From NCBI RefSeq assembly GCF_001758345.1, contig NZ_MKQS01000019.1, positions 1 to 43,267 on the forward strand: a stretch of 43,267 nt of DNA, given 5' to 3'. The notes under the pieces were generated by a model. That model was not told where the DNA came from. It saw nothing but the letters and a program-made list of their open reading frames with translations, and did not search any database. The translations under genes were made by a program, and so were the position numbers. Source of the stretch: Acinetobacter towneri (lineage in GTDB: Bacteria; Pseudomonadota; Gammaproteobacteria; Pseudomonadales; Moraxellaceae). Of this stretch, positions 9,538-17,873 are shown one piece after another (positions within the stretch are counted from its first letter, which is position 1; every line of letters begins with the position of its first letter).

Positions 9538-10485
9538 ATGAGCAATAGCAACTATACCGAGCTCTCCAATTCAGACGATTGCGACAAGTACGTAAAGCAA
9601 TTTATACAGGAATATCCGCTGCGTAATGCTGAAATTGGACAGGGGACTTTAATTAAACGTGCCCTACCGAGTCGACATAAACGCATGATTGGCGCATGGT
9701 GTTTTCTAGATCATGCAGGCCCTGTGAGTTTTCCGCAAGGTGAAGGTTTAGATATTGGTCCACATCCACATATTGGTTTGCAAACTTTTACTTGGATGAT
9801 TGAAGGGACAATCATGCACACCGATAGTTTGGGCACCAAGCAGCTGATTCGTCCGAAACAGGTCAATTTAATGACCGCAGGTTATGGCATTTCGCATACC
9901 GAAGTTGCACCTGAAACTGAAACCCATATGCATACTGCTCAGTTGTGGATTGCATTACCTGATGATCAGCGCAATATGGCACCGCGCTTTGACCATTACC
10001 CTGACTTGCCTGTGGTACACCAAGATGGTTTGGAATTTACTATTTTGGTGGGTGAATTTTTAAAAACGACATCACCTGTACGCGTGCATAGTGACTTGCT
10101 CGGGGTGGATATTAGCGCAAGCACATCGAGTAAAACCCGTTTAGCACTCAATCCTAAATTTGAATATGGTTTGATGATGTTAGCCGGAACAGCAACATTG
10201 CATGGGCATGAACTGACCGATGAAAATATGTTACTGCTTGAACCTGGGCTGACTGAAATTGAATTGCATGTGCATGCAGGTGCACGGCTATTACTTTTAG
10301 GTGGTTTGCCGTTTGAATCGCCCATTTTGTTATGGTGGAATTTGGTCGGAAGAACCCATGAAGAATTAGAACTGGCTCGGGAGCAGTGGGTCAATCAAGA
10401 TCCGCGTTTTGGTTCAATTCCAGATTATGACGGACCACGTTTAGAAGCACCGACTTTTCCCGCAAGAATTCGGGCATCGAGTTGA
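9538..10485 (+). CDS. Pirin family protein
   Basis: A 315-aa bicupin of the pirin family. The metal-binding set of the N-terminal cupin is complete: H76 and H78 in GPHPHIG, H120 and E122 in GISHTE. Bacterial pirins are non-haem iron proteins; some act as quercetin 2,3-dioxygenases and others bind metabolic enzymes, and the substrate here is unknown. The start is well supported by AAGGAG 9 bp before the ATG. A second pirin lies at 38071 and has clearly different sequence outside the cupin motifs. The stop codon at 10483-10485 coincides with the right end of an IS605-type element, so the last residues may have been changed by that insertion. Confidence 0.87.
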   Translation: MSNSNYTELSNSDDCDKYVKQFIQEYPLRNAEIGQGTLIKRALPSRHKRMIGAWCFLDHAGPVSFPQGEGLDIGPHPHIGLQTFTWMIEGTIMHTDSLGTKQLIRPKQVNLMTAGYGISHTEVAPETETHMHTAQLWIALPDDQRNMAPRFDHYPDLPVVHQDGLEFTILVGEFLKTTSPVRVHSDLLGVDISASTSSKTRLALNPKFEYGLMMLAGTATLHGHELTDENMLLLEPGLTEIELHVHAGARLLLLGGLPFESPILLWWNLVGRTHEELELAREQWVNQDPRFGSIPDYDGPRLEAPTFPARIRASS

Positions 10486-10640
10486 CATACTCCCCGACCT
10501 AAAGGACGGAGATTCCTACTGCTAGACGCTCATGTCCGAGCGCAAGAATATTCAGTGCGGAATTTACATCCCGATCATGGAGCGTACCGCACTCCACACA
10601 CTGCCATTCTCTTATTCCAAGTCCTGCTCTACCTTTCGGA
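10486..10640 (-). ncRNA. Putative omega RNA (reRNA) overlapping the tnpB 3' end
   Basis: TnpB guide RNAs are processed from the 3' end of the tnpB transcript through the right end, with the guide taken from flanking DNA. By that rule the scaffold here would cover roughly the last 100-150 bases of tnpB plus the right-end hairpin, and the guide would be complementary-strand pirin sequence just below 10486. Placement is by family analogy; the 5' limit is a guess. Confidence 0.3.
10490..10511 (-). repeat. Right-end hairpin of the IS605-family element, containing the tnpB stop codon
   Basis: On the minus strand CTCCGTCC and GGTCGGGGAG pair around TTTA with a small bulge. The tnpB stop codon TAG (10499-10501) overlaps the loop. 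In IS605 elements this segment is both the transposition end and the 3' scaffold part of the guide RNA. Confidence 0.65.
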
Positions 10641-11557
10641 CTACTATAGCGTGAGCCACAGCACGAGCAAGTCTGGGTGGTATAGGCTTCATTGACCTCT
10701 TCATACCATACCCCTGCGTTCTCGCATTTATACTTGAGCATGGTTTTTAGCGCAGAAAACCCTGTATCCAAAACAGACTTTGCCATCTTGGTTTTTACAA
10801 GTTTTTTTGCACTCAAGTCACCTACAACAATCAGTGCATTGTCTTTGACAAGCATAGTGCTTGCCTTATGCAAATGATCTTTACGACAGTTTGCAATCTT
10901 AGCGTGTAATGCACGTACACGCTTTTTATTTTTTGCTCGTTGAGCAGCAGCTAATTTCTGTTCGTACTTGCGATAGAACTTAGGATTTGAAATGACTGTA
11001 CCATCAGAACAGGTAGCAATATCTTTTAAACCTAGATCAATACCTATGGCTTTGCTTGACGTTGGCTTAGCTTGCTTTGGTGAATCTATAACAAGACAAA
11101 CATACCAACGTCCACGACTATCTTCTACGAATGAGCCTGTTTTGATATTGTATTTACTTAATCCGTAACTATCCCATAGTTTAAATTGATGTTTACCATA
11201 TTGAACATAGCCATCAGCATATTTGATTGCAACCTTTTTAAACGGTATCCAACCTAATGAACGTCTAGCTGATTTTTTATTACTGACACGCCATTTTAGT
11301 TTTGCTTTTTTGAATTGCTTGCGTCTTGTGACCAATTCTTCTGTCACTGCCTGAATAGTTTGACTGTGCAAGTTGCATTCTTTCGATGTGCCTTTGGTGT
11401 ATTTTGCAATATCGTATGCTGAAAAGAATTGTTGTTTTCTTTGAAGATGTTTAAAACACAAATCATTGACATAATTCCAGACAAAATTTACTTCGGATGC
11501 TAACTGATTTAGCACCTTGCAATGTTTGTCTTTTATGCGTAATTTGAGTGTCTTCAT
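10499..11557 (-). CDS. tnpB: TnpB, IS605-family RNA-guided nuclease with an atypical RuvC-II site
   Basis: A 352-aa TnpB. TnpB proteins cut DNA under guidance of an RNA from the element's right end and favour element retention. RuvC-I aspartate is D174 in GIDLGLKD, and RuvC-III is HDRDVNSALNI (D330). The zinc ribbon cysteines are C297, C300, C320 and C323. The canonical RuvC-II glutamate (usually V-E-D-L) is replaced by glycine in VVGDLSAKKL (G246, D247). A glutamate sits instead at E290 in EVNEAYTTQTCS, where many relatives have proline or lysine. This may be a rearranged rather than a dead site. The N-terminal domain begins directly with MKTLKLRIKDK and seems full length. No tnpA is adjacent. 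Confidence 0.88.
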   Translation of the reverse strand: MKTLKLRIKDKHCKVLNQLASEVNFVWNYVNDLCFKHLQRKQQFFSAYDIAKYTKGTSKECNLHSQTIQAVTEELVTRRKQFKKAKLKWRVSNKKSARRSLGWIPFKKVAIKYADGYVQYGKHQFKLWDSYGLSKYNIKTGSFVEDSRGRWYVCLVIDSPKQAKPTSSKAIGIDLGLKDIATCSDGTVISNPKFYRKYEQKLAAAQRAKNKKRVRALHAKIANCRKDHLHKASTMLVKDNALIVVGDLSAKKLVKTKMAKSVLDTGFSALKTMLKYKCENAGVWYEEVNEAYTTQTCSCCGSRYSSPKGRAGLGIREWQCVECGTLHDRDVNSALNILALGHERLAVGISVL

Positions 11558-11656
11558 CCAATTATTTTAACAATATTTTTCTTAATAGTGACTATAGTAC
11601 AAGTATTTAAAAAGACATTTCGTGTCGTTAATATGGTTTACTCCAGTCGCTTATAT

Positions 11657-11676
11657 CCTCGTGCTGAACCACGAGG
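11657..11676 (-). repeat. Left-end hairpin of the IS605-family element
   Basis: CCTCGTG (11657-11663) and CACGAGG (11670-11676) form a perfect 7-bp stem with loop CTGAAC, about 100 bp upstream of the tnpB start. This is the usual subterminal hairpin position for the left end. Confidence 0.6.
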
Positions 11677-11690
11677 TTTTACGCTCCAGT

Positions 11691-12128
11691 GGATAAATTT
11701 TAGTAAAGTAGTTTGAAAGAGGGAAAGCAGCTGACAAAGATTGGAAAAGTACAGCTACACAGTTTAGAGACAGCCTAGCAAAGTCAACTACTGTAAAGCG
11801 GACAGCATCAATTTATTGTGGATGGGCCTGAGTCTTTGGGTGATCCTGATATAGGTCCCGCTGCTATGATTTGCTTTGTAGAGCTCTACTCACCTGCACT
11901 ATGATTACCTTGCGTATGTAATCACAGCATAAGAGATTAGATGTTAGCAAATTTCAAGTTGAGGCTCATTTACGCAGTATGGAGACTCGTACTGAGTTTG
12001 GTTAAACATAGGTTGAATCCATCTCTTACAAATAGCCCTCTAGGACAGATCTTTTTTTATAATGTTGATTCAAATATAAGCGTACAATCACTCAAAAACA
12101 TAGGCAATAAAACAAAATAGGACGTTTT
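11691..12128. other. Gene-free 430-bp stretch with possible decayed coding fragments
   Basis: No full gene is visible. Two short plus-strand frames look protein-like but have no start signals. One at 11712-11831 contains KDWKSTATQFRDSLAKSTT. The other, at 11797-11904 in another frame, contains FIVDGPESLGDPDIGPAAM. They could be pieces of a gene broken by frameshifts beside the IS605 element. I do not recognise the family. The last 100 bp before 12129 probably hold the promoter of the glutathione transferase gene. Confidence 0.4.
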
Positions 12129-15971: not shown

Positions 15972-16077
15972 TCGTGATCTGTTCTCTGTTTAGGTTGATT
16001 CAAAGAACGTCGTACTCAAAAACATACGGTTATCAGAAATAAAAATCATTCAGATTTGGTTATCAAACTTCTAAATG

Positions 16078-16099
16078 CCTCCTTTACTGCAAAAGGAGC
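16078..16099 (+). promoter_or_regulatory. Hairpin in the maeA leader region
   Basis: CTCCTTT pairs with AAAAGGAG around TACTGC, about 75 bp upstream of maeA. There is no T-run. It may be a leader structure or a chance palindrome. Confidence 0.25.
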
Positions 16100-16172
16100 T
16101 AAGCTAGTCAGATGTCTGATGGCGTATCTCAATCCATGCGCCATTCGCAACTGATTTAGAATGAGATGAACA

Positions 16173-17873
16173 ATGACCACCGCAAATCTGCAGCAAAAAC
16201 GTCCTTTATATATTCCCTATGCTGGCAACAGCCTTTTAGAACTGCCTTTATTAAACAAAGGTTCTGCATTTTCTGAAGAAGAACGTACTCGTTTTAACCT
16301 GCATGGTTTAATTCCGCATGTAATTGAAAATATTGAAGAGCAAACCCAGCGTTCTTATCAGCAATATTGTGCTTTTAGTGATGCCATCAACAAACATATT
16401 TATTTACGCAATATTCAAGACACCAATGAAACCCTGTTTTATCACTTAATCGAGCAGCATTTGAGTGAGATGATGCCGATTATTTATACCCCAACGGTGG
16501 GTGAGGCATGTCAGCGTTTTTCCGATATTTATCGCCGTCATCGTGGTATTTTTATTTCGTACCCTGACCGCGCCCACATTGACGATATTGTGCAAAACAT
16601 CAATAAAAAGAATGTCAAAGTGATTGTGATTACCGATGGAGAACGTATTTTAGGTCTGGGTGATCAGGGCATTGGTGGCATGGGCATTCCAATTGGGAAA
16701 CTGTCTTTATATACCGCTTGTGGTGGTATTAGCCCTGCCTATACCTTGCCCATTACCCTCGATGTTGGTACCAATAACCCGCAATTGCTGAATGACCCAA
16801 TTTATATGGGCTGGAATCAGCCGCGTATCAATGGTGAGGAATATTATCAATTTGTTGATCAAGTACTAAATGCGGTGAAACGTCGATGGCCAAAGGCATT
16901 AATTCAATTTGAAGATTTTGCTCAGAAAAATGCCATGCCGTTATTAAACAAATATCGTGATCAAATTTGCTGTTTTAATGATGATATTCAGGGTACGGCA
17001 GCAGTTTCTGTGGGCAGTTTAATTGCAGCATCACGGGCTGCGGGCAAACAATTGAAAGATCAAACCATTGCCTTCTTGGGCGCAGGTTCGGCAGGTTGTG
17101 GTATTGCCGAGCAAATTGTGGCGCAAATGGTGGTCGAAGGTCTAAGCGATGCTGAAGCGCGCGCTCGCATATTTATGGTAGACCGTTATGGCTTGTTTAC
17201 CGATAATCAGCCGAACTTACTCGACTTCCAAAGCAAACTGGCACAAAGCACGGAACGTGTCACAGGTTGGGGCAATGCAGAAGGCATTATTTCATTATTG
17301 GATGTGATTCAGCATGCCAAACCAACCGTACTCATAGGCGTGTCAGGTCAACCGGGTTTATTTACTGAAGAGGTGATTAAAGCCTTGGCTGCCAACTGCG
17401 AGCGTCCAATTGTATTGCCACTTTCGAATCCAACCTCACAAGTCGAAGCGTTTCCTGCCGATATTTTGGAATGGACGGAAGGTAAGGCACTGATTGCCAC
17501 AGGCAGTCCATTTGAGCCAGTGAATTATCAGGGCAAAATTTATAATATTTCGCAGTGCAATAACTCTTATATTTTCCCGGGCATTGGTTTAGGCGTGATT
17601 GCTGCAGGTGCAACGCGGGTGACTGATAGCATGCTCATTGCATCAAGTAATGCTTTGGCAGATTGTTCGCCATTGTTGAAAGACCCGAATGCAGATTTGT
17701 TGCCAGATTTAAATGAAATTCAGCAAGTTTCTAAGTTTATTGCTTTTAAGGTGGCAAAAGCTGCAATGGATGCAGGCGTCGCACCTGTGTTAGATGACGA
17801 AGCTTTACAACAGGCAATTGAAGCGAATTTCTGGAAGCCTGAATATCGTGATTATAAGCGTGTGACGTTTTAA
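16173..17873 (+). CDS. maeA: NAD-dependent malic enzyme
   Basis: A 566-aa cytoplasmic enzyme, the size of E. coli MaeA (565), that oxidatively decarboxylates malate to pyruvate with NAD and a divalent metal. The catalytic tyrosine is in [14 protein letters not shown] (Y105), the general-base lysine is near [10 protein letters not shown] (K176), and the metal ligands are E247, D248 and D271 in FEDF and [10 protein letters not shown]. The NAD fold has GAGSAG at 303-308. The large subunit and the lack of a phosphotransacetylase domain separate it from MaeB. It supports growth on C4 acids and gluconeogenic carbon. It is monocistronic with its own terminator. Confidence 0.94.

What the first reader, a model, noticed from the sequence alone, without database searches (positions are those of the whole stretch)
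10499..11557. TnpB with glycine at the canonical RuvC-II glutamate
The motif usually read as V-E-D-L is VVGDLS here, so the expected catalytic glutamate (position 246) is glycine. RuvC-I D174, RuvC-III D330 and the zinc ribbon are intact, and a glutamate appears at E290 in NEAYTTQTCS. TnpB subgroups with a relocated RuvC-II glutamate have been described in surveys of the family; this may be one, rather than a dead enzyme.
Basis: partly seen in the sequence, partly recalled or inferred. Interest (0 to 1): 0.6.

Follow-up and report, generated by a model that had tools for sequence, protein, structure and literature searches.

The report
TnpB nuclease with a relocated glutamate
This gene encodes a small RNA-guided DNA-cutting enzyme carried by a bacterial insertion sequence; one of its three active-site acids appears to sit at a different place in the chain from the textbook position, a variation that has already been published for other members of the family.

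Summary
Confirmed, and a member of a published group. The ORF (minus strand, 10499-11557, 352 aa) is a TnpB (NF040570, 270.7 bits). D174, G246, E290, D330 and the zinc ribbon are as stated. Glycine is no lesion: in 122 unique full-length relatives (query included) position 246 is Gly in 122, 290 is Glu in 121 (Asp in 1), 174 Asp in 122, 330 Asp in 121. Against 46 canonical TnpBs the positions swap: Glu246 in 46/46 canonical and 0/40 relocated; acid at 290 in 0/46 and 40/40. E290 lies exactly six residues before the first CxxC: the published 'Ealt' arrangement (Yoon 2023). The gene is under purifying selection and lies in an intact-ended 1,211-bp IS200/IS605-type element (10482-11692) without tnpA, inserted after TTTAT at the stop codon of a pirin gene. 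A covarying RNA hairpin pair overlaps its 3' end. The predicted fold matches TnpB and Fanzor2. Nuclease activity is inferred, not shown; the D174-E290-D330 distance could not be measured. New member of a known kind. Small addition: the published search pattern, as I read it, misses all 122.

The parts
10499..11557 (-). tnpB, 352 aa, RNA-guided endonuclease TnpB family; RuvC-II Glu relocated from 246 (Gly) to 290
10482..11692 (-). IS200/IS605-type element with only tnpB (IS1341-like layout: LE-tnpB-RE), 1,211 bp
   Evidence: End positions shared by many copies (RE end 10482 in 82 HSPs; RE ends TCAA in 76 of 76 unique flanks, LE starts C after TTTAT/C in 29 of 29 unique flanks); empty site in L185
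11693..11697 (-). TTTAT, inferred target/transposon-adjacent motif (TAM) left of the left end
   Evidence: 28 of 29 unique left flanks TTTAT, 1 TTTAC
11649..11684 (.). left-end imperfect hairpin (15-nt arms, 80% complementary, 6-nt loop), inferred TnpA recognition hairpin
   Evidence: function inferred from the family
10482..10732 (-). inferred guide-RNA (omega-RNA/reRNA) scaffold region: last 77 codons of tnpB plus right end
   Evidence: fourfold-site pairwise identity 0.34-0.53 per 25-codon block for codons 1-275, 0.63-0.71 for codons 276-350; the exact 5' end is not determined
10526..10543 (-). RNA hairpin inside the tnpB coding region (6 pairs: 10538-10543 with 10526-10531)
   Evidence: 33 sequences: 100% of cells paired, 6 of 6 pairs with changes on both sides
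10491..10512 (-). right-end hairpin, loop holds the tnpB stop codon
   Evidence: 8-pair helix 88.5% paired, 6 of 8 pairs with changes on both sides; one further pair 78.1% paired; pair 76-101 unpaired in 16 of 32
10462..10481 (-). flank expected to be copied as the guide of this copy's RNA (first 20 nt beyond the right end; antisense to the end of the pirin gene)
   Evidence: position set by the right end; guide role inferred from ISDra2 (PMC8612924 passages)
11036..11038 (-). codon of D174 (RuvC-I)
   Evidence: Asp in 122 of 122
10820..10822 (-). codon of G246 (canonical RuvC-II Glu position)
   Evidence: Gly in 122 of 122
10688..10690 (-). codon of E290 (relocated Glu, six residues before C297)
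   Evidence: Glu 121 and Asp 1 of 122
10568..10570 (-). codon of D330 (RuvC-III)
   Evidence: Asp 121 and Asn 1 of 122
9538..10485 (+). pirin-like gene into whose stop codon the element inserted; the present TGA stop is partly IS sequence
   Evidence: ORF; L185 reads ASK-stop where the window reads ASS-stop; 'pirin' is my naming of the ORF, not from a family search

Best explanation
A selected, probably active TnpB RNA-guided DNA endonuclease of an IS200/IS605-type insertion sequence, whose RuvC catalytic triad is D174-E290-D330: the RuvC-II glutamate has moved from the end of strand beta-4 (246, now Gly) to just after strand beta-5 (290), so that a carboxylate can reach the same metal site. 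The protein would bind the RNA made from the 3' end of its own gene plus the right end, use the flanking sequence as guide, and cut the TTTAT-flanked empty site left when the element is excised, so that repair restores the element. Shown here: residues, swap, conservation, selection, element ends, motif, empty site, covarying RNA hairpins, overall fold. Inferred: metal binding by E290, cleavage, guide use, repair.
For: Residues. 246/290 swap complete: Glu246 46/46 canonical against 0/40, acid at 290 0/46 against 40/40; the only complete carboxylate switch in the RuvC half. 122 relatives: G246 122, E290 121 (+1 D), D174 122, D330 121 (+1 N). E290 is exactly six residues before C297 as in the published Ealt group. 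39 of 40 Ealt rows on one side of a branch in a tree built without the trait columns (SH-aLRT 85). Median dN/dS 0.107, 282 pairs. Fold: 8h1j TnpB Z 24.3, rmsd 3.5, 322 aligned; 9b0l Fanzor2 Z 24.1, rmsd 4.9, 330 aligned. DSSP: D174 in strand 170-175, G246 in strand 242-247, E290 after strand 284-289, D330 in helix 329-347. Element ends, motif, empty site. Guide-RNA overlap. Literature: one RuvC-II-rearranged ortholog cleaves; SpuFz1 coordinates two Mg ions with E541, D383, N385 and D606 (passage).
Against: No activity data for this protein or any close relative. No coordinates, so the E290-D174-D330 distance is unmeasured. 27 of 59 TnpBs showed TAM activity in the published screen, so many are silent in vitro. 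The element lacks tnpA and the genome holds only a 95-aa Y1 fragment, so mobility now is doubtful. The second copy in the genome is broken (two frames, one TGA). Conservation shows selection on the protein, not which reaction it does.
Confidence: 0.85

Rival explanations
1. A nuclease-dead TnpB-like RNA-guided DNA-binding repressor (TldR type): loss of the RuvC-II glutamate killed cutting but kept guided binding.
For: The canonical catalytic Glu is missing; TnpB inactivation with kept RNA and DNA binding is documented (PMC13418256 passages).
Against: D174, E290 and D330 are kept in 120 or more of 122 relatives each, whereas TldRs carry RuvC mutations. The gene lies between IS ends at many different sites with different flanks and hence different guides, not beside one fixed partner gene. 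No neighbour shared between copies was looked for systematically.
Confidence: 0.07
2. Active, but E290 is structural and another residue or water serves as the third metal ligand.
For: No coordinates to prove proximity. D264 is conserved in both kinds, 97% and 96%, and E287 is Glu in 100 of 122.
Against: 290 is the only complete acid switch in the RuvC half; D264 is equally present in canonical enzymes so is no substitute; E287 is V, I, L or T in 22 of 122; D247 is N, K or S in 38 of 75. 328 switches only partly (0.82 against 0.30).
Confidence: 0.06
3. An inactive, decaying IS relic: the glycine is simple damage.
For: tnpA is absent; the second copy in the same genome is broken.
Against: Gly246 in 122 of 122 relatives and dN/dS about 0.1; full-length open frame; both ends intact.
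Confidence: 0.02

Closest known systems
D-Phi-G / Ealt TnpB clade (Yoon et al. 2023, PMC10711439)
   Same: DLG at RuvC-I; Glu six residues before the zinc finger; non-Glu at the canonical site; IS200/IS605-type element
   Different: Shorter spacing than the published pattern: 113 residues between DLG and E290 and 19 between the two CxxC, so the printed RegEx (read as 120-160 and 12-18) does not match this protein or any of 122 relatives; whether these were in their tree was not checked
RuvC-II-rearranged TnpB clades RII-r3 and RII-r5 (Nety et al. 2023, PMC10278001; clades from Altae-Tran et al. 2023, not held)
   Same: TnpB with the RuvC-II catalytic position rearranged; transposon-borne; omega-RNA at the 3' end
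   Different: Which of the two clades this belongs to is unknown: the figure and supplement were not seen
Fanzor2 / pro-Fanzor (for example mimivirus Fanzor2, 9b0l)
   Same: Ealt glutamate; overall fold (Z 24.1)
   Different: RuvC-I is DLG, not the DPG fingerprint; IS200/IS605-type ends and Y1 TnpA relatives, not IS607
ISDra2 TnpB (8h1j, 8exa)
   Same: Fold (Z 24.3), RuvC-I and RuvC-III Asp, zinc ribbon, element layout with TAM, LE, RE
   Different: ISDra2 has Glu at the canonical site and Pro at the 290 column

Membership tests
TnpB (guided_TnpB, NF040570) | Profile match over the curated cut-off | tested here: met
   270.7 bits against cut-off 100, residues 3-339; Pfam PF07282 83.6 and PF01385 59.6 over their cut-offs
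TnpB (guided_TnpB, NF040570) | TnpB fold | tested here: met
   8h1j Z 24.3, rmsd 3.5, 322 aligned
TnpB (guided_TnpB, NF040570) | RNA-guided DNA cleavage | not testable with these tools
   no assay
Ealt (relocated RuvC-II Glu) TnpB | Glu six residues upstream of the first zinc-finger Cys, none at the canonical site | tested here: met
   E290, six residues, C297; G246
Ealt (relocated RuvC-II Glu) TnpB | Match to the published RegEx D{P}G x(120-160) E x6 CxxC x(12,18) CxxC x(4,8) D | tested here: not met
   spacing 113 and 19; 0 of 75 and 0 of 47 match; the RegEx is printed 'x(120160)' and 120-160 is my reading; it is a search filter, not the definition
Ealt (relocated RuvC-II Glu) TnpB | Groups apart from Ecan TnpBs in a tree | tested here: met
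   39 of 40 Ealt rows on one side, SH-aLRT 85 (under the starred level), quick tree; L136 falls elsewhere on a long branch
Ealt (relocated RuvC-II Glu) TnpB | E290 within the D174/D330 metal site | not testable with these tools
   no model coordinates; order of secondary-structure elements agrees
Fanzor / pro-Fanzor | DPG motif at RuvC-I | tested here: not met
   DLG; DPG pattern 0 of 75 and 0 of 47
TldR (nuclease-dead TnpB-like repressor) | Inactivated RuvC triad | tested here: not met
   D174, E290, D330 conserved, if E290 is accepted as the third residue
IS200/IS605 family element | Ends with hairpins, insertion 3' of a fixed short motif without target duplication | tested here: met
   TTTAT/C in 29 of 29 unique left flanks; TCAA right end in 76 of 76; empty site TTTAT + flank in L185; hairpins
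IS200/IS605 family element | Y1 transposase tnpA in the element | tested here: not met
   none in the window element; own genome has only a 95-aa fragment; related elements carry a divergent tnpA: 14 of 107 loci hold a relative of that fragment

The most novel reading that the evidence does not exclude
The short (about 350 aa) D-Phi-G/Ealt TnpBs of Acinetobacter, other Pseudomonadota and viral contigs form a large, experimentally unexplored lineage that spacing-based searches miss, and their relocated glutamate gives them, as it has been proposed for Fanzors, DNA cutting with little collateral single-strand cleavage, using a guide RNA that lies almost wholly inside the coding region.
Probability: 0.3. 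Interest if true: 0.45.

Novelty: new member of a known kind. Interest (0 to 1): 0.22.

Why it matters
It is a caution for annotation: a check of the triad that looks only at the positions of the ISDra2 residues (the kind of check described in PMC13418256, passages) would label the whole lineage nuclease-dead, although 122 of 122 relatives kept D174 and an acid at 290. The lineage is compact, its inferred TAM (TTTAT), element ends and 3' RNA hairpins are defined here, and it would make a simple test of whether moving one carboxylate changes collateral activity.

Tried and rejected
Distance test: the AF2 job (collected) gave no coordinates, so D174-E290-D330 was not measured. Fold searches gave scores and ranges, no residue pairs at 290; the residue alignment to Fanzor2 9b0l was not printed among the five shown.

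Rfam at gathering threshold found two tRNAs only in the window, no omega-RNA family. RNAalifold over the last 215 nt of 58 copies gave only a weak consensus (-19.3); only the two 3' hairpins were then tested with pair counts, on 33 of those 58 copies, with the structure partly drawn from the window's own fold. Fourfold-site conservation is not uniform in the 3' region: codons 325-332 drop to 0.382.

HSP ends: besides 27 ending at 11697 and 82 at 10482, 26 stop at 11557, the gene start, because the left end is diverged or tnpA intervenes (the reason is inferred). Left flanks were extracted for 43 loci only, 29 unique.

Rows dropped: 107 ORF hits, 92 full length, 75 unique with the query; 66 new viral loci, 47 unique full-length rows without masked letters. 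In one search six rows with masked bases and L135 (neither Glu) were set aside; L136 has Gly/Glu but Glu at the RuvC-III position and was counted as Ealt. In the same comparison four N-terminal acids also differ between the groups (10, 32, 49, 146); I take them as lineage differences outside the RuvC half.

Considered and rejected: D247 or E287 as the substitute acid (both vary). Papers not held and not seen: Altae-Tran 2023, Jiang 2023, Meers 2023. No search was made that would show that this particular element is unnamed in ISfinder.

Full report
Observation. The ORF is on the minus strand, 10499-11557, 352 aa. It matches NF040570 guided_TnpB with 270.7 bits (cut-off 100), PF07282 and PF01385, and in the PDB ISDra2 TnpB at E 2.4e-22, where G246 faces a Glu and E290 a Pro.

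Family. Scans by peptide patterns that include neither position gave 77 loci in genome contigs, 12 in viral contigs and, with an alignment, 78 loci in viral contigs. From the loci in hand, 107 ORFs hit the query, 92 were full length and 75 unique with the query; from the 66 new viral loci 47 unique full-length rows were kept. In these 122 rows position 246 is Gly in 122, 290 Glu in 121 and Asp in 1, 174 Asp in 122, 330 Asp in 121 and Asn in 1; identity to the query goes down to 38%. An Asn in place of the RuvC-III Asp is also known in the active GtFz1 (PMC11423790 section 7).

Swap. In 46 distant canonical rows and 40 Ealt rows, 246 is acidic in 46 of 46 and 0 of 40, 290 in 0 of 46 (one gap) and 40 of 40. 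In the RuvC half no other column switches completely; 328 does partly (0.82 against 0.30), and D264 is equally common in both. In the N-terminal half four columns (10, 32, 49, 146) also differ, which I read as lineage differences. One row, L135, has neither Glu and was left out. In a quick tree of 87 rows without the trait columns, 39 of 40 Ealt rows lie on one side of a branch with SH-aLRT 85 (not at the starred level); L136, on a very long branch, joins a canonical row. So in this sample the relocation looks like one old event for our lineage.

Selection. Median dN/dS is 0.107 over the 282 pairs of the 75-row set with dS between 0.1 and 1 (90th percentile 0.168); the query against its nearest relatives gives 0.06-0.11, at dS 0.8-1.25, close to saturation. 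The protein is thus under purifying selection, although the overlapping RNA may add to the constraint at the 3' end.

Structure. AlphaFold2 with 73 rows: mean pLDDT 88.8, pTM 0.72; D174 in strand 170-175, G246 in strand 242-247, E290 right after strand 284-289, D330 in helix 329-347. VIA-align: 8h1j (ISDra2 TnpB) Z 24.3, rmsd 3.5, 322 aligned; 9b0l (mimivirus Fanzor2) Z 24.1, rmsd 4.9, 330 aligned. Distances could not be measured since no coordinates are handed out. PMC11423790 (section 7) places the catalytic Glu on the loop between the fifth strand and the TNB domain, which is where E290 falls.

Element. Many copies end at 10482 (82 HSPs) and at 11697 (27 HSPs). The left flanks are TTTAT in 28 and TTTAC in 1 of 29 unique cases (43 loci), the right end is TCAA in 76 of 76 unique cases (100 loci), and beyond it the sequence is varied. 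The element is therefore 10482-11692 with the motif TTTAT at 11693-11697. A Shewanella plasmid (CP078039, L185) has the empty site: TTTAT followed by a 16-nt stretch with 2 differences from the window's flank. The element sits at the stop codon of a pirin-like gene: L185 reads ASK-stop, the window ASS-stop with the stop in the element. No tnpA is in the element; the genome has a 95-aa Y1 fragment, 97.8% identical to the TnpA next to a tnpB of this family in another genome (L096); 14 of the 107 loci hold a relative of it. The tnpB-only layout corresponds to what PMC9956272 (passages) calls IS1341. A 361-nt derivative with both ends and no tnpB is on an Acinetobacter plasmid.

Guide RNA. Fourfold-degenerate sites have pairwise identity 0.34-0.53 in 25-codon blocks up to codon 275 and 0.63-0.71 in codons 276-350, with a dip to 0.382 at 325-332. 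Two 3' hairpins covary in 33 sequences: 92.5% of cells paired against 71.2% in shuffles and 44-62% in slid versions; 85 cells with changes on both sides against 20.5; the hairpin inside the coding region is paired in 100% of cells with double changes in all six pairs. The sequences are related, so the shuffle counts are not probabilities. This fits reRNA/omega-RNA from the 3' end of tnpB and the right end, as in ISDra2 (PMC8612924 passages) and in the survey of Nety et al. (PMC10278001 sections 13 and 14).

Mechanism, most likely. D174-E290-D330 binds the metal ions and cuts DNA next to TTTAT as directed by the guide; the natural target would be the empty site after excision, so that repair restores the element (model of Karvelis et al., passages). 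Shown: sequence, conservation, swap, selection, ends, motif, empty site, RNA covariation, fold. Inferred: metal binding by E290, cleavage, guide use, repair.

Known or new. Yoon et al. (PMC10711439; sections 23 and 28 and the reference list read whole, otherwise passages) define Ecan and Ealt, Ealt being six residues before the zinc finger, and describe an Ealt clade with D-Phi-G at RuvC-I, which is this protein's combination. Nety et al. report one active ortholog in a RuvC-II-rearranged clade. The finding is a new member of this known kind. A modest addition is that the pattern printed by Yoon et al. (read by me as 120-160 residues between DxG and E) matches 0 of 75 and 0 of 47 of these proteins, in which the gap is mostly 113 (79 of 107 measured). 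A triad check against ISDra2 positions alone would call them dead; that is inference from a method passage.

Noticed in passing
window 11731-11972: Remnant of an OsmC-family gene with internal stops and a frame change (63.6% and 75% identical pieces), next to the insertion; the gene is open in the Shewanella plasmid CP078039 (L185), between a glutathione S-transferase gene and the pirin end.
   Followed up: partly
window 9538-10485: The pirin-like gene keeps its full length because the right end of the element supplies a new stop codon one residue from the old end (ASK-stop to ASS-stop).
   Followed up: yes
L154 (own genome, C9:19448-20200): Another TnpB-like ORF of 324 aa with the canonical Glu (AEDL) but with most zinc-ribbon cysteines missing; a similar-sized match (327 aa) is in genome G234.
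   Followed up: no
L187 (NZ_CP055280.1, Acinetobacter sp. NEB 394 plasmid): A 361-nt piece with both ends of this element and no tnpB, which suggests mobilisation of the ends alone by a transposase in trans.
   Followed up: partly
L188 (own genome, C4 around 16032-16283): Truncated Y1 transposase fragment about 60 bases from a sequence like the left end of this element (TTTAT followed by CCAATGAGCC...), probably a relic of a complete relative.
   Followed up: partly
L059 position 330 and L135: One relative has Asn for the RuvC-III Asp with the rest of the triad kept, as in the active Fanzor GtFz1; one distant TnpB-like ORF (L135) lacks Glu at both positions and may be a real inactivated member.
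   Followed up: no
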